This document shows, piece after piece, positions 17,994-63,811 of a DNA stretch of 64,000 nucleotides (positions within the stretch are counted from its first letter, which is position 1; every line of letters begins with the position of its first letter). The translations under genes were made by a program, and so were the position numbers. Source of the DNA: Gemmatimonadota bacterium (lineage in GTDB: Bacteria > Latescibacterota > UBA2968 > GCA-2709665). The stretch is taken from NCBI GenBank assembly GCA_028877215.1, contig JAPPFJ010000011.1, positions 1 through 64,000 of the forward strand, written 5' to 3'. Under the pieces are notes generated by a model. It was not told the DNA's origin. It searched no databases and saw only the letters and a list, made by a program, of their open reading frames with translations.

Positions 17994-19238
17994 ATGAACA
18001 GAACGGAGATGCTCGAGCTAATTGCGAATGGTGAGAACTCCCTCGTTGAGTTCAAGCGGGACGATTGCCATGCGGATGAAGTCACGAAGGAGATGTCTGC
18101 GCTGCTAAACCTTGAGGGCGGCTTTATCCTGCTTGGCGTAGAAGATGACGGCCAAATCTCCGGGCTGACGAGAAGCCAGAAGGATGCGGAAGAATGGCTC
18201 ATGAATATTGCCCACAACAACCTTCAGCCTCCAACTACACCTGTATGGACCTCGATGTCGATGGATGACGGGAGCGTAGTCGGAATCATGGAACTTACCG
18301 CGGATAGTCCGGGCAAACCCCATAAAGCGAGACGCGGTAAAGCCTGGGTCACTTACACACGCGTAGGAAGTGTGTCGCGTGAGGCGACGCGAGAGGAAGA
18401 AGGCAGGCTGTATCAGTCTGCCAGGCTCGTCCGTTACGAAATAAAATCCGTGGCAGACATGGGGTTGGAAAACCTAGATTTCGACCGGATTGAGAACTAC
18501 CTACGCGTAGTTCTGAAGCGATCAGTACCGGGCCGGGCGGACGTCAAGGGCTGGCGGCGCTTTTTGCTCAACTCCGACTTATTGGTTACTGTCGGAGACG
18601 GTGATTGCACGTCAGTCGCAGGCCTCTTGCTTTTCGGCTTGAATCCAAACCGGCGTCTGCCTCAGGCTGGTGTAACCGCAGCGGCATTCAATGGTGTTCA
18701 GAAGGACTACAACACAGTCGATGAGGAACGGATCCGCGGGCCATTGGCGCCAATACTCTCGAAGAGCGGTGGCAAAGTCGACAGAGGGGTCATCGACCGT
18801 ACGATTGATTTTGTGAAACGTAACATGGGAGGCATCGCGTGGCTCGACGGTGCCCGCCGCCGCCGAAAAAGGGCTTTCCCTCTTGACGCGGTACGCGAAG
18901 CTGTAGTGAACGCAGTGGTACATAGAGACTATGCGCGGGAGGGTACCGACATCGAAGTCTCGCTGTACAAGGATCGACTCGAAGTCATCTCACCTGGAAG
19001 GCTTCCGAACGGCGTCACCGTTGACAAGATGAAAGAGGGCGTAGTGCGGGTCGCCCGTAACGAGTTGCTCAAGGAGATTCTCCGCGACTACCGCTACATC
19101 GAGCATCAAGGTATGGGTGTCCGCAACCGGATAATCGAGTCAATGCGGCGCCACAACGGCACGGAACCGGATCTTGAAGAAGAAGACGATCGCTTTGTCG
19201 TTCGGCTCTGGAAGGAGCCCGGACAGGAAGGTACGTAA
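17994..19238 (+). CDS. AlbA_2 (Schlafen-type) plus HATPase protein, partner of the PHP ATPase
   Basis: 414 residues. The N-terminal AlbA_2 domain reads NGENSLVEFKRD and GGFILLGVEDDG (about 12-54). A middle region follows (KAWVTYTRVGSVSREATREE). The C-terminal GHKL-like ATPase fragment (COG2865 type) has REAVVNAVVHRDY near 300, then LEVISPGRLPNGV and GMGVRNRIIESM. No winged-helix tail is present, unlike the paralogue at 58 kb. The 3-bp spacing to the upstream gene makes a two-gene operon. A nucleic-acid-binding effector or regulator is plausible, but unproven. Confidence 0.88.
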   Translation: MNRTEMLELIANGENSLVEFKRDDCHADEVTKEMSALLNLEGGFILLGVEDDGQISGLTRSQKDAEEWLMNIAHNNLQPPTTPVWTSMSMDDGSVVGIMELTADSPGKPHKARRGKAWVTYTRVGSVSREATREEEGRLYQSARLVRYEIKSVADMGLENLDFDRIENYLRVVLKRSVPGRADVKGWRRFLLNSDLLVTVGDGDCTSVAGLLLFGLNPNRRLPQAGVTAAAFNGVQKDYNTVDEERIRGPLAPILSKSGGKVDRGVIDRTIDFVKRNMGGIAWLDGARRRRKRAFPLDAVREAVVNAVVHRDYAREGTDIEVSLYKDRLEVISPGRLPNGVTVDKMKEGVVRVARNELLKEILRDYRYIEHQGMGVRNRIIESMRRHNGTEPDLEEEDDRFVVRLWKEPGQEGT

Positions 19239-19678
19239 AGAGAGTCGGATTAATCGCCCCGCAGTAAAGTAAGCCAGGTGGCGTTAACGATGCGAGAGAA
19301 TTCCGCGTCTCTTGAGCGCACCAGGTTCCGTAGCGGTGTTCCGGCCCGCCGTGTTCACCTTCCCAAAATTCCCACCCAGACGATCCTCAATGTCCATCGG
19401 ACTTCCCAGTGGTCATGAAACGGCACGCAATAACATCCGTGTGCGATCCGTTCGATTACTCTGGTCGAAGTGATATTTTGGTTCACCCAAATTCGGCAGG
19501 GCGCTGGAGAATACTTCCGCGTCGAATTGGACTGCACGGAATAAAGGAAGCCCGCGTCAGCTTCGCGTTTGGAAATGAACGAGCAGTTCGGTTGTCCTAA
19601 GCTGCTGAAATATTGATATTTGTTCTTTTCTGGCAGGGGCCGAGTACTGCTGGGAAATGGTCGCGTTCGGGAGTATTG
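19239..19678. other. Intergenic region, no supported gene
   Basis: 440 bp after the PHP/AlbA_2 module. Short ORFs on both strands lack ribosome sites and recognisable motifs. No hairpin terminator was found directly after the module. The sequence may be decayed coding DNA. Confidence 0.4.
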
Positions 19679-53727: not shown

Positions 53728-53950
53728 TCCGTTTATCCGAATATAGGCGTCAGTTCACACGGTCTGCAAGTCCGAGTGATCGCATCCAGTCTCTCTGTGT
53801 TTACTGTGCTTTTTGTGGCTATTGTCCTGCTCTTCCGGTTTACGGCAAAAAAACATTGATCACAAAAGACACAAAAGGTCACACGTGCCCGAAATCGGCT
53901 TCGTTCCCGGTAGGCAACCACCGGCGTGTCGACAAGAGCTTTCCAGTGTG

Positions 53951-54011
53951 CGTCCATTTGTCGGTTGAATTGGCGTCCAATTGTCGATTAACTATGCGTC
54001 CATTTGTTGGT
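53951..54011. repeat. CGTCCA-TTGTCGG triplet, left flank of DUF4143 ATPase
   Basis: Three 14-bp copies: CGTCCATTTGTCGG at 53951, CGTCCAATTGTCGA at 53974, CGTCCATTTGTTGG at 53998, spaced 23 and 24 bp. The middle copy carries AATT instead of ATTT. The same ordered triplet recurs at 55275-55334 in the same orientation. Confidence 0.75.
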
Positions 54012-54033
54012 TCGTTGTGCGGTTGGCTGGTCC

Positions 54034-55281
54034 CTACCGCTCCCACAAATCGCTCAGCGGAACCGCGAGCATGCGCTTGTCCGCAAGCGGGAGACAATCG
54101 CGGCCGGCGTAAAGCAGCACGCCGGACTGGAAATCCTCGCCGCAGCGATCTGCGAGCCGAACAAGCCCCTTCCCGTCTCCAGGGGCGAGCGTACGGGCGG
54201 CTTTGACTTCGATGCCCCATGTCCTTTGACCCAGGGTAATGACGATATCGACTTCCACCCGATCCTTGTCTCTATAATGCCAGAAACGCAAATCAGGTTC
54301 CGTCCACGTGGCCAGGGCGATGAGTTGCTGCACCACAAAAGACTCCAACAGATGTCCCATGCGGACCCTCCTGCCGAGCCAGTCGTACGCGGTCAGGTCG
54401 GCTAGGGTTGCGGCCAGCCCGGAATCGAGGAGATGGACCTTGGGTGATTTGATGAGCCGTTTGGCCGGGTTACGGTGCCACGCGGGCAGGCGTCGCACCA
54501 GAAAGAGCCGCTCGAGCACCACGACGTAGTGATTGACCGTCGACCGGTCAAGGCCGAGGGTATCGGCCAGATTGCTGGTGTTCAACAGTCCGGCGCTGCG
54601 AAGGGCCAACAGCTCCAACAGGCGGGACAATTCGTGCGCATCTCTTACCCGAGCCACGTCCCGCACGTCCCGATCGATGATGCTGCGCAGATACTGCCTA
54701 TGCCATTGCCGGGAGCGGACAGGCGTGCGCGTGAGCGGCTCGGGGTATCCGCCGGCGACCAGCCGGTCCTGCAGTGACTGCGCTTCGGGCGTCGCCTCCT
54801 GCCCGATTCCCGGCTCGATCGTGCCGTTCAACAGGTCGCTGAGGAAGCGGCCTGGCGCGCGCGCTTTTTCCGATTCCGTCAACGGATGCAACTGCGTGAT
54901 TTCCATCCGTCCAGCAAGGGATTCAGTTACGGTGGGCACCATCAACAGATTGGCCGAGCCGGTCAGCACGAAACGACCGGGACGTCGGTCCCGATCCACG
55001 GCGTGCTTGATGGCCGGGAGAATCGCCGGCGCTCGTTGCACTTCGTCAAGCGTCACCGCATCCGGCAGGCTTGCGACGAATCCGGACGGATCGGCCAGGG
55101 CGGTCTGATGGTAGTTGTACTCGTCCAGACTGATGTATGCGCGGTCGGGCGCGAGTTGCCGCACGATCGTGGTCTTCCCGCACTGCCGCGGTCCGAGCAC
55201 ACAGACCACCGGCGTGTCGGCCAACGCCTCACGGATGACGGGTTCCAGTGAGCGGGGAAACAGAGAACGGCTGGCGTCCAT
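54034..55281 (-). CDS. AAA+ ATPase, AAA_14/DUF4143 family
   Basis: 415 residues. Walker A LGPRQCGKTT near 29-38, Walker B VTLDEVQRAP near 75-84, and LTGSANLLM sensor motif near 110. The C-terminal DUF4143 part has a winged-helix-like segment (TLGLDRSTVNHYVVVLERL) and EVDIVITLGQRTWGIEVKAA, a PD-(D/E)XK-like core. Paralogous to the ATPase at 5-6 kb but not closely alike. Its ATG lies inside one of the CGTCCA repeats, and an equal repeat triplet lies just past its stop. Confidence 0.9.
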   Translation of the reverse strand: MDASRSLFPRSLEPVIREALADTPVVCVLGPRQCGKTTIVRQLAPDRAYISLDEYNYHQTALADPSGFVASLPDAVTLDEVQRAPAILPAIKHAVDRDRRPGRFVLTGSANLLMVPTVTESLAGRMEITQLHPLTESEKARAPGRFLSDLLNGTIEPGIGQEATPEAQSLQDRLVAGGYPEPLTRTPVRSRQWHRQYLRSIIDRDVRDVARVRDAHELSRLLELLALRSAGLLNTSNLADTLGLDRSTVNHYVVVLERLFLVRRLPAWHRNPAKRLIKSPKVHLLDSGLAATLADLTAYDWLGRRVRMGHLLESFVVQQLIALATWTEPDLRFWHYRDKDRVEVDIVITLGQRTWGIEVKAARTLAPGDGKGLVRLADRCGEDFQSGVLLYAGRDCLPLADKRMLAVPLSDLWER

Positions 55282-55334
55282 TTGTCGGATTTGTTAGCGT
55301 CCAATTGCCGGTTATGAGAGCGTCCATTTGTCGA
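55275..55334. repeat. CGTCCA-TTGTCGG triplet, right flank of DUF4143 ATPase
   Basis: Copies at 55275, 55298 (AATT variant) and 55321, each 23 bp apart. The first contains the ATPase start codon read on the minus strand (ATGGACG). On that strand the copies lie in the 5' leader, so they could be operator sites as well as recombination scars. Confidence 0.75.
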
Positions 55335-55477
55335 ATAACCGCGAGGTGGCAATATACAGGATCAGGGCGCAAACGTCAAGAAGAGAGTCTGTCTACGTCG
55401 CCACCAGCCGATCACGACGCGGCGTGCCGGCATAACCTCCTTTACCGCAACGGCGAAAGCAATCGGCGTTTCACCTT

Positions 55478-56864: not shown

Positions 56865-57500
56865 GCCTCCCAGGTATCGAAACATGCAAATCGCACGGGG
56901 ATGATCCGATGCTGCAGTAGATCCTTCGTCGGCCTGGGGGGCCTCCTCTGGATGACAGCGGGAAGCATCTTGCTCGGCTATCGGCCAGCGTGTCATTCAG
57001 AGCGGAGCGAAGAATCTCCCGTCTTCTCGACTGTACGATTCGCAAATGGTCTTCAAAGACGAACCAGTGCGCGGACGCCTGACCAGCCTTTCGGCCTCCT
57101 CACGATGACAGCTACGGCGAAGGCGTGGGCGCAGCGTTTCGCCAATGGTTATCGTAACGCATGTCATTCAGAGCGCAGCGAAGAATCTCCCGTCTTCTCG
57201 ATTGTACGACCAGCTATTGTCTTTGAAGATGAACCTGTGCGCGGACGCCTTGCCAGCCCTTCGGCCTCCTCTGGATGACAGCGGGAAACAACGTGCTCGG
57301 CTATCGGCCATCATGTCATTCAGAGCGGAGCGAAGATCTGAGCGATACATTTCGCCAATGGTTATTGCAAGTCATGTTATTGAGAGCGGAGCGAAGAATC
57401 TCCCGTCTTCTCGACTGTACGATTAGCATATTGTCTTTGAAGATGAACCTGTGCGCGGACGCCTTGCCAGCCTTTCGGCCTTCTCTGGATGACAGTTTCA
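56865..57500. repeat. Tandem and diverged interspersed repeats
   Basis: Four copies of GTCATTCAGAGCG-AGCGAA begin at about 56992, 57162, 57315 and 57375 (the last diverged). Each is followed by GAATCTCCCGTCTTCTCGA and GTGCGCGGACGCCT connectors, giving units of about 150-170 bp. The core CTGCAGTAGATCCTTCGTC is at about 56912. Same family as the block at 45.2-46.1 kb. Confidence 0.75.
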
Positions 57501-57575: not shown

Positions 57576-57812
57576 TCAGCTGATGGATTCAAACTCGTAA
57601 ACCAGGGTCTCAATCGTGCGAACGGGACGGCATCGCTCCCACACCGCTCGCTGCAAACGTGCAACGGTCTCGGGTGAGAAGTGCTTCTCGTCCGTCTCCA
57701 CGTTGACTCGAGCCGGGACGTTTTCAATCTGGAAGAGCTTCCCTTCCAACTCAATGTGGTAGGTCACCCTTTTCTTTAGCAGCATCTCGTTCCATGCGCT
57801 GTCTTCAGGCAT
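57576..57812 (-). CDS. YgiT/MqsA-like small protein without zinc-finger half
   Basis: 78 residues. VTYHIELEGKLFQIENVPARVNVETDEKHFSPETVARL (in two adjoining parts) and the ending RTIETLVYEFES match the YgiT-type antitoxin-like family. The CxxC pairs of the zinc half are absent, as in some variants. It overlaps the end of the AlbA_2/HATPase reading frame by 8 bp, so it is the second gene of that operon. A decayed copy of its 3' end is at 59943-60000. Confidence 0.7.
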   Translation of the reverse strand: MPEDSAWNEMLLKKRVTYHIELEGKLFQIENVPARVNVETDEKHFSPETVARLQRAVWERCRPVRTIETLVYEFESIS

Positions 57813-58154
57813 CGTCCTCTCCCAACTCCGTCAGAAGCTGCCGTCCCCTGTCCGTCAGCCGGTATTTCTGCTTGCTGCTGGTCGGTTTGTCCGGTATGGT
57901 CATTTCCAGCCAACCCGCTTCCATTAGTGGCTTACGATAGTTTGCCCGGAAAGTCTTCCGGTGCTTCAGTCCGAGGAACTCCATAATCTCATTTGCAAAG
58001 CGGGATCGCCTGCAATGCCAGACAACTTGTGCGGTGACTTGTGCGGTGACTTGTGCGGTCAGGTCCTCCAGGGCGTCCGAAAGCATATGTAACATATTGT
58101 CCGAAAGTGTGTTAGAGTCTTCTTGTAGATTTCTGTCAACTTGTGCGGTGATCT
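57805..58154 (-). pseudogene. Out-of-frame C-terminal part of the AlbA_2/HATPase gene
   Basis: This frame encodes RQITAQVDRNLQEDSNTL, then three TAQV units, then a winged-helix-like tail (FANEIMEFLGLKHRKTF, MEAGWLEMTIPDKP, YRLTDRGRQLL). That is the normal C terminus of COG2865-type proteins. It is out of frame with the upstream 5' part because of the 11-bp repeat at 58155-58187. An internal ATG-started frame of 96 codons (57805-58095) could be translated separately. Confidence 0.75.
58025..58060. repeat. 12-bp in-frame tandem repeat encoding TAQV
   Basis: Three copies of ACTTGTGCGGTG (last ends in C). Read on the minus strand they encode Thr-Ala-Gln-Val repeats, a frequent linker in this family. 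Length changes here would not shift the frame. Confidence 0.75.
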
Positions 58155-59333
58155 GGCGCCGACCAGGTGCCGACCTGGTGCAGACCTGTCATCAGCCACC
58201 TGCAGGGACTCGGTCACCGGCCGCCTGAAGGTCGTCGTCACCCACGACTCGGATACGTCGATCAGCGGTTCCGGAACCCCGTGTTCGCGGCACAGGTCAC
58301 GGATACGCCGGATACCGGAACCTATCCTTTCGACCGCGTCCATGCGGTGCAGGATTCCGAACAGCAGCGGATTACGTGGAATACTCTTCACACCCAAATC
58401 CGCTTCCGTCATCCCGGCGGGCAACCCACCCGGGCTTACGATTTCCAGCCGGTCGTTGAACAGGTAAATCTGTACATTGGCGGTGGATCTGTAGTCGCGA
58501 TGGGCCAAAGCGTTGACAACCGCCTCGCGAATGGCCTCTTCGGGCAGTTCCGGTCGCTCCTCCCTCCTTACGTGTTTAATGATGTACTCTACGTTGATTT
58601 TGGAGAGAATCCAGGTCATCACCTCTTCAATCATCGAATAGACGTCGCCGTGGAAGTCGCGCCTGTCCAGAATGCGCACCTTGTCAGTACCCATAAACAG
58701 GGCGCACGCGACGTCGGCGCTGACGTTGAACTTTCGGATGTCGCGGGCCAGCAACCAGGCGCCGGCGTGTGTCATCCGGCCATCTTCACCCGTCAGGTGC
58801 AGGTTTCGGAGCGCGGTCTCCGGATCCATGTTCTCGGGAATCTTGGCGCGGCGTTGAAACAGGGACCAGTTCTCATCATCAAGGTCATTCTCTAATGAAA
58901 ACCTGTCACACGCGGTTTCATCGAAATGGATCAGGCCTTCCTTATAGAAAAACTCACGGATTTCCTCGCGCGACATCTGCTGACTGCTTGCCTCTTCGCG
59001 GATGAAAAACTTTCCGCCGAAAGAGTAGGGCTTGCTGTGCTGCGCTGGTACGGTTACACAGAGTACGGCATCCACGCTTTCGATCTCCACCGCGATGGGC
59101 GGCTCAGCGCTACGGGCAATCGTCCGGACCTGGGACTTCAAGCGGTTGTGATTCGAAACACCGCGGATTCCGCCGTCGTCGGCAATGCCGATCAGGATCA
59201 CGCCTCCCGTGGCATTGGCAAAGGCGCATATCTCATGTCCGAGATCGGAAGTGACCGATCGTTTAAACTCAATGGTGTAACCTTCACCAAGAGTAGTCAG
59301 TTGAGCGAGGGTCTTTGGGTTCATATTGATCAT
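58059..59333 (-). CDS. AlbA_2 (Schlafen-type) plus HATPase protein, 5' part of a frame-disrupted gene
   Basis: 424 residues as read. AlbA_2 domain: EGYTIEFKRSV and GGVILIGIADDGGI near 18-56. HATPase_c_4-type region: REAVVNALAHRDYRS near 268, LEIVSPGGLPAGMT and VERIGSGIRRIRDLC. After VTTTFRRPVTESLQVADD the frame enters three 11-bp repeats and ends in 42 unconserved residues. The family winged-helix tail lies in another frame downstream. Removing one repeat unit would give one ORF of 505 residues (57805-59333). It is a paralogue of the gene at 17994. Confidence 0.85.
   Translation of the reverse strand: MINMNPKTLAQLTTLGEGYTIEFKRSVTSDLGHEICAFANATGGVILIGIADDGGIRGVSNHNRLKSQVRTIARSAEPPIAVEIESVDAVLCVTVPAQHSKPYSFGGKFFIREEASSQQMSREEIREFFYKEGLIHFDETACDRFSLENDLDDENWSLFQRRAKIPENMDPETALRNLHLTGEDGRMTHAGAWLLARDIRKFNVSADVACALFMGTDKVRILDRRDFHGDVYSMIEEVMTWILSKINVEYIIKHVRREERPELPEEAIREAVVNALAHRDYRSTANVQIYLFNDRLEIVSPGGLPAGMTEADLGVKSIPRNPLLFGILHRMDAVERIGSGIRRIRDLCREHGVPEPLIDVSESWVTTTFRRPVTESLQVADDRSAPGRHLVGARSPHKLTEIYKKTLTHFRTICYICFRTPWRT
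58155..58187. repeat. 11-bp tandem repeat (three copies) at the frame break
   Basis: Plus-strand units: GGCGCCGACCA, GGTGCCGACCT, GGTGCAGACCT. With three units (33 bp) the upstream frame bypasses the C-terminal tail. With two units (22 bp) it reads RSAPGRRQITAQV straight into the tail. The arrangement fits slipped-strand variation. Confidence 0.8.
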
Positions 59334-63069: not shown

Positions 63070-63399
63070 TCATCTACGGTATCTTTCTGTCAACTCCTGA
63101 GGGTCACCTCAGGTTCTCGGGGTCGGGAGTCATCCCTTCCGCCTCATATTGGCAGCTCACAACTGCCACGATACAACATACCCATTTCTGGGTCTCGAAG
63201 CAAGTCTAAATGCCGTGGGCGCAGGCCACTTGAGATTTCGGTTACGCAGTTCCCCGAACGCCTAGTCAGGAAACCGTTTTAATACATCAATTAGTCCCAT
63301 GGGGGTGCTATCCTGTTCTGGCTTCCGTGAAATGCCGGTTGGTCAACTCTATCTACCCGGGTTTTCCGGTCACCCCTTTTCGCGCCTTTCATCGCGCTG

Positions 63400-63811
63400 T
63401 CGTCAGCGATCGTCCTCTCCTAACTCGGCCAGACGTTGCCGCCCCTTGTCCGTCACCTTTTATTTCTTCTTGCTGCTGTTCGTTTTGTCTGGAATGGTCA
63501 CTTCCAGTCATCCCGCTTCCATTAGCGGCTGAAGGTAGTTTGCCCCGGAACGTTATCCGGTGTTTCAGTCCGAGGAACGCCATAATCTCATTCGCAAATC
63601 GGGGTAGCCTTCAGTTCCAGACGACCTGTGCGGTAATTAGGGCGATGACTTGCGCGGTCAATTCCTCCAGGCCTCCCGGAAATATCTGTAACCTATTGTT
63701 CGAAAGGGTGTTAGGATCTTCTGTAAGGTTTTCGTCAACTTGTGCGGTGACTTGGCGTCGGCTTGTACTGCACCAACGTATCGCGTGGTCAGTTCTACGG
63801 CCGTTTGGCAC
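63400..63811 (-). pseudogene. Decayed copy of the AlbA_2/HATPase C-terminal tail
   Basis: Minus-strand frames encode RRQVTAQVDENLTEDPNTL, LEELTAQV and, after a stop, FLGLKHRITF. They match the tail frame at 57805-58154 (RQITAQVDRNLQEDSNTL, FLGLKHRKTF). Several frameshifts and stops are present. DNA similarity covers about 370 bp. Only the tail is retained, not the AlbA_2 or ATPase parts. Confidence 0.75.

What the first reader, a model, noticed from the sequence alone, without database searches (positions are those of the whole stretch)
58059..58187. Three 11-bp tandem repeats sit exactly at the frame break of an AlbA_2/HATPase gene: possible phase-variable switch
The 5' frame (59333 to 58059) loses the family winged-helix tail, which is intact in another frame down to 57805. 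The break coincides with three copies of an 11-bp unit at 58155-58187. Eleven is not a multiple of three; arithmetic on codon positions shows that two (or five) copies would fuse both frames into one 505-residue ORF reading RSAPGRRQITAQV. This is what a slipped-strand ON/OFF switch looks like, and COG2865-type proteins are regulators or defence-linked. Pseudogenisation or an assembly error are alternatives.
Basis: partly seen in the sequence, partly recalled or inferred. Interest (0 to 1): 0.75.

Follow-up and report, generated by a model that had tools for sequence, protein, structure and literature searches.

The report
Eleven-base repeat switch in Schlafen gene
In an uncultured bacterium, a gene for a predicted phage-defence protein is split into two reading frames at a short run of 11-base repeats; close relatives with two more copies of the repeat carry the gene whole, and the same break at the same kind of repeat occurs in a distantly related bacterium, so the repeat likely acts as a slow on/off switch for the protein's last domain.

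Summary
The head (AlbA_2/Schlafen plus HATPase, 424 aa) and the winged-helix tail (PF21247) lie in different frames, and the break sits in about three imperfect 11-bp units. Two same-genus genomes carry five units and one open frame; another copy, 44 bp shorter than the open allele, is out of frame. An independent Binatia pair differs by exactly 11 bp: one whole, one broken with an intact tail (dN/dS 0.12). The unit codes an 11-residue cycle in all three frames and builds the linker. In 13 of 13 loci chosen for a visible array, the 11-bp period exceeds 1000 synonymous recodings. All 5 head-to-tail frame switches seen among 37 loci fall in the repeat linker, 3 of them at 11-bp arrays. Two near-identical Nitrospirales proteins differ by one unit plus a balancing 1-bp change (inferred). 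I commit to a slow, phase-variation-like contingency locus in a bacterial Schlafen with predicted defence function. Not shown: switching within one population, or any function. The window's array is degenerate, its tail looks somewhat relaxed, decayed tail copies lie nearby, and breaks elsewhere in the family are scattered too, so decay at a hot spot is the main rival.

The parts
58059..59333 (-). Head ORF, 424 aa: SLFN_AlbA_2 (residues 17-121) and HATPase_c_4 (285-369); the last ~40 residues are read from array and tail DNA in the shifted frame
   Evidence: 95% identical over residues 1-394 to the whole relative P0001
58148..58188 (-). 11-bp repeat array, about 3 imperfect units, at the frame break; codes part of the linker
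   Evidence: five units in the open relatives G003a and G002
57805..58152 (-). Tail frame: ITAQV linker and Fic-like_C winged helix (PF21247), intact to its stop; the listed ATG start in this frame is at 58095
   Evidence: tail dN/dS 0.25 against the open allele G003a
58025..58059 (-). 12-bp array coding TAQV, 2.9 copies, frame-neutral
   Evidence: one copy fewer in G002 and G003b
63387..63757 (-). Decayed tail-only copy of the gene; 81% DNA identity, which ends at 58158, inside the array of the main gene
   Evidence: stops in all three printed frames

Best explanation
The gene is a bacterial Schlafen-type gene (AlbA_2, HATPase, winged helix) whose linker is built from an 11-bp DNA repeat, and with two units fewer than its open relatives its winged-helix tail is out of frame, which likely makes it a slow on/off contingency locus. 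Shown: because 11 is not a multiple of three, every frame of such an array reads the same stop-free 11-residue cycle, so unit number decides only in which frame the tail is entered. Shown: whole and broken alleles differ by exact multiples of 11 bp in two distant groups (Gemmatimonadota and Binatia records). Inferred: units are lost and gained by slipped pairing or short-repeat recombination. Predicted: the broken state makes a head without its winged helix, which would silence or uncouple a costly anti-phage RNase, and regain of frame would restore it. Untested: switching within one population, the rate, and any biological effect.
For: Same-genus alleles: window out of frame; G003a and G002 five units, open frames of 519 and 513 codons between stops; G003b 44 bp less than G003a, out of frame. 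Binatia: L029 whole, L028 exactly 11 bp less with its tail intact in another frame; dN/dS of head 0.10 and tail 0.12 at dS near 0.27. Frame switches: seen in 5 of 37 loci (window, G003b, G067, G181, G080), all 5 in the repeat linker, none inside head or tail; 3 are at 11-bp arrays (contracted in G003b), 2 in 12-bp-type linkers. DNA-level repeat: in 13 of 13 loci chosen for a visible array, 0 of 1000 synonymous recodings reach the observed period-11 score. Of 131 proteins, 20 lack PF21247 in the precomputed table and 7 of these end just past the 11-residue repeat in a shifted frame (read by eye; DNA seen for P0035 only, L028). Nine broken-at-array tips need at least 8 changes on the head tree (10 other rows left out). 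P0012 and P0016 share 467 of 474 columns; among the deletions tried, only a 1-bp plus 11-bp pair explains their linker difference. Linker residues 375-408 have pLDDT under 50, read as likely disordered.
Against: No reads or mixed populations seen. The window array is short and imperfect, so slippage should be slow. Window tail dN/dS (0.25, 0.28) exceeds that between the two open alleles G003a and G002 (0.12), and G003b has a TAG in its tail frame and tail dN/dS of 0.33-0.43. Tail constraint partly reflects shared history before the break. Decayed copies lie beside the gene. Of 15 proteins read as true breaks, 8 break elsewhere, and such breaks are scattered on the tree as well (7 rows, 6 changes), so scatter alone does not prove switching. 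24 of 37 loci have no clear 11-bp array (score under 15). G181 also has a TAG inside its match.
Confidence: 0.53

Rival explanations
1. Plain loss of function at a mutational hot spot: the 11-bp repeat makes the linker unstable, broken copies are on their way to decay, and no switching is selected.
For: Decayed tail copies beside the gene in G000, G002 and G003; second-site stop in G003b; degenerate window array; window tail dN/dS above that of the open pair; breaks elsewhere in the family scattered too.
Against: Binatia broken allele has a fully intact tail with dN/dS 0.12; window tail intact; inferred balancing pair P0012/P0016; frame-safe 12-bp linkers exist in the family, yet the unstable 11-bp unit recurs.
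Confidence: 0.33
2. The short product is the working form: head without winged helix, or head and tail made as two proteins (tail from the ATG at 58095).
For: Head and tail are each intact in the window and in L028.
Against: Shifted C-terminal ends differ in length and sequence between broken alleles; in L028 the tail-frame ORF starts inside the winged-helix domain; in 29 of 37 loci one frame matches head and tail, two of them with an in-frame stop.
Confidence: 0.07
3. The frames are joined in the cell by programmed ribosomal or transcriptional slippage.
For: Frames overlap and both are intact.
Against: Window is in one off-phase, L028 and G003b in the other (22 versus 11 and 44 bp), so opposite shifts would be needed; I saw no slippery heptamer in the window overlap (by eye).
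Confidence: 0.03
4. The array is a protein-binding site inside the gene (iteron or operator, about one helical turn per unit) and the frame effect is a by-product.
For: Period close to a helical turn; CAAGT-like core in arrays of several groups.
Against: A loose pattern for the unit found only three single matches upstream of the 13 genes and no upstream cluster (the pattern does not cover every unit variant); units differ between lineages.
Confidence: 0.08

Closest known systems
[quoted passage not shown]
   Same: Same three-part architecture by Pfam and by the paper's wording; predicted defence role
   Different: BREX genes were not searched for in the window; the passages seen mention no repeat array or frame switching in these proteins
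Simple-sequence-repeat phase variation in coding regions, e.g. Haemophilus influenzae (PMC2651432, passages read)
   Same: Repeat unit not a multiple of three inside a gene; unit number sets the frame
   Different: Units named in the passages are 1-9 bp, often in many copies; here 11 bp, about 3 to 6.5 often imperfect copies, coding an 11-residue cycle in a linker of a predicted defence gene
Fic protein 4rgl and DIP2311 3lmm (solved structures)
   Same: 4rgl carries a related winged-helix tail; 3lmm a related HATPase part
   Different: Repeat-driven frame change was not looked for in either

Membership tests
Bacterial Schlafen-HATPase-wHTH protein | SLFN_AlbA_2 domain at the N terminus | tested here: met
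   PF04326 E 1.4e-19; Foldseek match to SLFN13 N-domain E 2e-4 on a low-confidence model of P0001
Bacterial Schlafen-HATPase-wHTH protein | HATPase domain | tested here: met
   PF13749 E 1e-22
Bacterial Schlafen-HATPase-wHTH protein | Winged-helix tail in the same frame | tested here: not met
   Tail is in another frame in the window; same frame in G003a and G002
Bacterial Schlafen-HATPase-wHTH protein | Schlafen catalytic carboxylates and RNase activity | tested here: inconclusive
   E22 invariant, E17 and D52 nearly invariant in 38 relatives; their catalytic role is recalled, activity untested
Bacterial Schlafen-HATPase-wHTH protein | Recognised by defence-gene models | tested here: inconclusive
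   PADLOC: partial matches of three relatives to models named pAgo and Aga_SIR2 (best 9e-17), none named Schlafen; NCBIfam: no family
Bacterial Schlafen-HATPase-wHTH protein | Linkage to BREX core genes | not tested
   Only a few window genes were scanned
SSR phase-variable (contingency) locus | Coding repeat with unit not a multiple of three | tested here: met
SSR phase-variable (contingency) locus | Unit-number differences that change frame between otherwise intact alleles | tested here: met
SSR phase-variable (contingency) locus | Many pure tandem units | tested here: not met
   Window about 3 imperfect units; 2.7-6.5 in the others
SSR phase-variable (contingency) locus | Reversible switching within one population | not testable with these tools
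   No reads or isolates available

The most novel reading that the evidence does not exclude
Across several bacterial phyla, bacterial Schlafen defence proteins carry a built-in 11-bp contingency array in the hinge before their winged helix: a stop-free repeat that reads the same 11-residue peptide in all three frames and so can add or drop the sensor/DNA-binding tail by single-unit slips, giving phase-variable abortive-infection immunity.
Probability: 0.33. Interest if true: 0.78.

Novelty: new variant of a known kind. Interest (0 to 1): 0.6.

Why it matters
Phase variation by repeats is best documented in pathogens and with short units (recalled; PMC2651432 passages). Here the same trick appears to sit in the hinge of a predicted anti-phage protein of mostly uncultured bacteria, with a unit of 11 bp that codes the linker itself. 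If switching is real, it would explain how populations carry a costly suicide-type defence: some cells keep it on, others off. It also gives a simple genomic test (count units in reads). Even if it is only a hot spot, it warns that truncated 'AlbA_2/RecG-like' annotations can be repeat-length alleles.

Tried and rejected
Promoter or iteron copies of the unit: a loose pattern gave three single upstream matches in 13 loci and no cluster. A special viral spread of the unit: the degenerate pattern gave 12 viral stretches, its reversed control 5, and several of the 12 share one array sequence, so no enrichment is claimed; of the 17 viral loci, one (L069) holds a relative of this gene and 16 gave no head or tail match; a protein scan of viral contigs found none. 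Population data from plasmids, phages and E. coli: no match at the limits used; with another query 62 plasmid records, all under 60% identity, the 40 listed about 29-33%, one match touching an annotated BREX pglX; not followed. The family is patchy: 13 of 64 (1e-100), 9 of 395, 2 of 295 and 7 of 198 genomes (1e-90), these sets overlapping in part. Ribosomal slippage: rejected on opposite shifts. Silent tail cassettes: most remnants carry stops, though remnant 2 of the window's contig has an open 83-codon tail; not pursued. L054 and L059 are frame switches in 12-bp-type linkers; in L054 it lies by a C run. P0005, P0061, P0095 and P0126 may be cut by contig ends and were not counted as breaks. 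Clustering figures (5 of 5 in an assumed 12% of the gene, 2.5e-5; 7 of 15 truncations in an assumed 22 of 180 residues, 0.001) are rough, and relatives are not independent. Paper searches listed no title or abstract start describing an 11-bp array in this family; apart from passages of four papers only listings were seen.

Full report
What is there. On the minus strand, 59333-58059 codes 424 residues with SLFN_AlbA_2 and HATPase_c_4; a second frame, open to 57805, codes the PF21247 winged helix. The frames part at about three imperfect 11-bp units, 58148-58188. A frame-neutral 12-bp TAQV array follows at 58025-58059. The window lies on the 67,355-base contig C37 of a 5.35 Mb genome.

Relatives of the same genus. 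All 4 genomes of the genus (own included) match the gene at DNA level, G001 only in fragments. G003a (94%) and G002 (91%) carry five units and are open from head to tail (519 and 513 codons between stops). G003b (88%), a second copy in the same genome as G003a, has 44 bp less than G003a in the array and is out of frame; it also has a TAG in the tail frame. The window allele has 22 bp less than the open alleles. All array differences that change frame here are multiples of 11.

The same thing elsewhere. L029 and L028 are records titled Candidatus Binatia. L029 has about four GGGACCAAGTC units and is whole; L028 has exactly 11 bp less and its tail, intact to the natural stop, lies in another frame. 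dN/dS for this pair is 0.10 in the head and 0.12 in the tail at dS near 0.27. Window against G003a gives 0.09 (head) and 0.25 (tail), against G002 0.19 and 0.28; the open pair G003a and G002 gives 0.20 and 0.12; G003b tails give 0.33-0.43. So the Binatia tail shows no relaxation, the window tail perhaps some, and G003b more. Shared history before the break contributes to low tail values, so they show that the breaks are young or reversible, not which.

Why 11 bp matters. Three units make 33 bp, hence an 11-residue repeat such as GTKSGPSRDQV; all three frames read the same cycle, so a stop-free unit stays stop-free in every frame. A lag-11 peptide repeat (score 6 or more) occurs in 12 of 123 linkers and a lag-4 repeat in 21 of 123; shuffles gave 0 of 2460 for lags 4 and 11. 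In 13 loci chosen for a visible array, out of 37 gene loci, recoding the linker with synonymous codons never reached the observed period-11 score in 1000 tries each. Units differ between lineages (CCAGGTCGGTA, GGGACCAAGTC, GGGACCCAGTC, CAAGTATCCCG and others).

Where frames break. Among 37 gene loci, 5 switch frame between head and tail and all 5 do so in the linker: window, G003b and G067 at 11-bp arrays (contracted in G003b), G181 and G080 in 12-bp-type linkers. No locus was seen to switch frame inside head or tail; G016, G116b and the Woesearchaeota locus match only part of a tail or none. In-frame stops were flagged in G050 (near the tail's end), G321 (head) and G181; the TGA flagged in G819 appears to be the natural end. 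Loci were found by strong head matches, so breaks deep in the head are under-counted. At protein level three searches (one listed in each of 1923, 1599 and 1286) gave 131 proteins; 20 lack PF21247 in the precomputed table. By eye, 7 end just past the 11-residue repeat in a shifted frame, 8 break elsewhere (P0006, P0015, P0025, P0033, P0121, P0124, P0129, P0130; P0006 also in the linker), 4 may be contig ends and 1 (P0123) has the tail. On a head tree of 133 rows the nine broken-at-array tips (seven proteins, window, G003b) need at least 8 changes, with ten other rows left out; as a control, seven of the elsewhere breaks need 6 changes, so they are scattered too. Many inner branches of that quick tree are weak.

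A frame-restoring pair. P0012 and P0016 are identical in 467 of 474 columns; P0012's DNA is L024/L046 (100%). No single 12-bp deletion and no 2+10 to 6+6 pair turns P0012's linker into P0016's; only 1+11 does, with one solution, one unit fewer. Deletions combined with substitutions were not tried, P0016's DNA was not seen, and the direction is unknown, so this is inferred.

Structure and function. An AlphaFold2 model of the whole relative P0001 has low overall confidence (mean pLDDT 63); residues 375-408 are below 50, and blocks from 431 to 500 average 86-96. The tail matches Fic protein 4rgl, the HATPase part 3lmm, and the N-terminal domain Schlafen proteins. PADLOC gave partial matches to pAgo-named models and none named Schlafen; NCBIfam gave none. 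[quoted passage not shown] the cited preprint was not seen). Defence function here is therefore predicted from architecture. Ten neighbours of relatives were scanned: PIN proteins in L024 and L027, a DNA methylase with Vsr in L025, a DEAD helicase in L030, another AlbA_2 protein in L021, DUF4238 in L022, one weak match and three without family; in the window, DUF488 and a HEPN match below its cut-off. Several are toxin- or defence-like, and no partner recurs throughout.

Mechanism and weight. Shown: unit-number differences in steps of 11 that set the frame of the tail, in two distant groups. Inferred: unit loss and gain by slippage or short-repeat recombination. Predicted: loss of the winged helix uncouples a costly defence RNase. 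Unknown: rate, reversibility, effect. In H. influenzae, repeat units above seven bases are reported as infrequent (PMC2651432, passages); an 11-bp unit in about 3 to 6.5 often imperfect copies should switch slowly (my inference). I rate a slow contingency locus at 0.53 and plain decay at a hot spot at 0.33.

Noticed in passing
window 63403-63760 (-), contig C37 64991-65109 (-), and matching places in G003 and G002: Tail-only copies, most of them decayed, lie about 3-6 kb upstream of the gene in three genomes of the genus; in the window's contig they are of two tail types, and identity of the first to the main gene ends at the array.
   Followed up: partly
proteins P0060, P0068 versus P0046: Heads each 96-97% identical to P0035 over residues 1-300, but the first half of the winged helix is of a different type, which suggests tail exchange at the linker.
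   Followed up: no
window 53947-54021 and 55274-55337: Related 23-bp repeats (GCGTCCATTTGYCGG core) lie at both ends of the AAA_14/DUF4143 gene 54034-55281 (PADLOC PDC-S01).
   Followed up: no
window 17994-19253 (+): Another gene resembling the head (32% identical), with two TAA stops inside.
   Followed up: no
window about 57600-57817 (-): Short reading frame overlapping the tail stop looks like the start of a YgiT-type antitoxin (name recalled, not tested), soon broken.
   Followed up: no
window 56901-57426 (+): Repeated stretches giving chance-looking ORFs with HSERSEES-like peptides.
   Followed up: no
L054, oriented positions about 1770-1825: A relative whose frame breaks by a run of C in a 12-bp repeat linker, a different slip type.
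   Followed up: partly
L070, L071, L081-L085 (viral contigs): Similar 11-bp arrays lie inside or at the end of viral reading frames without a match to this gene.
   Followed up: partly
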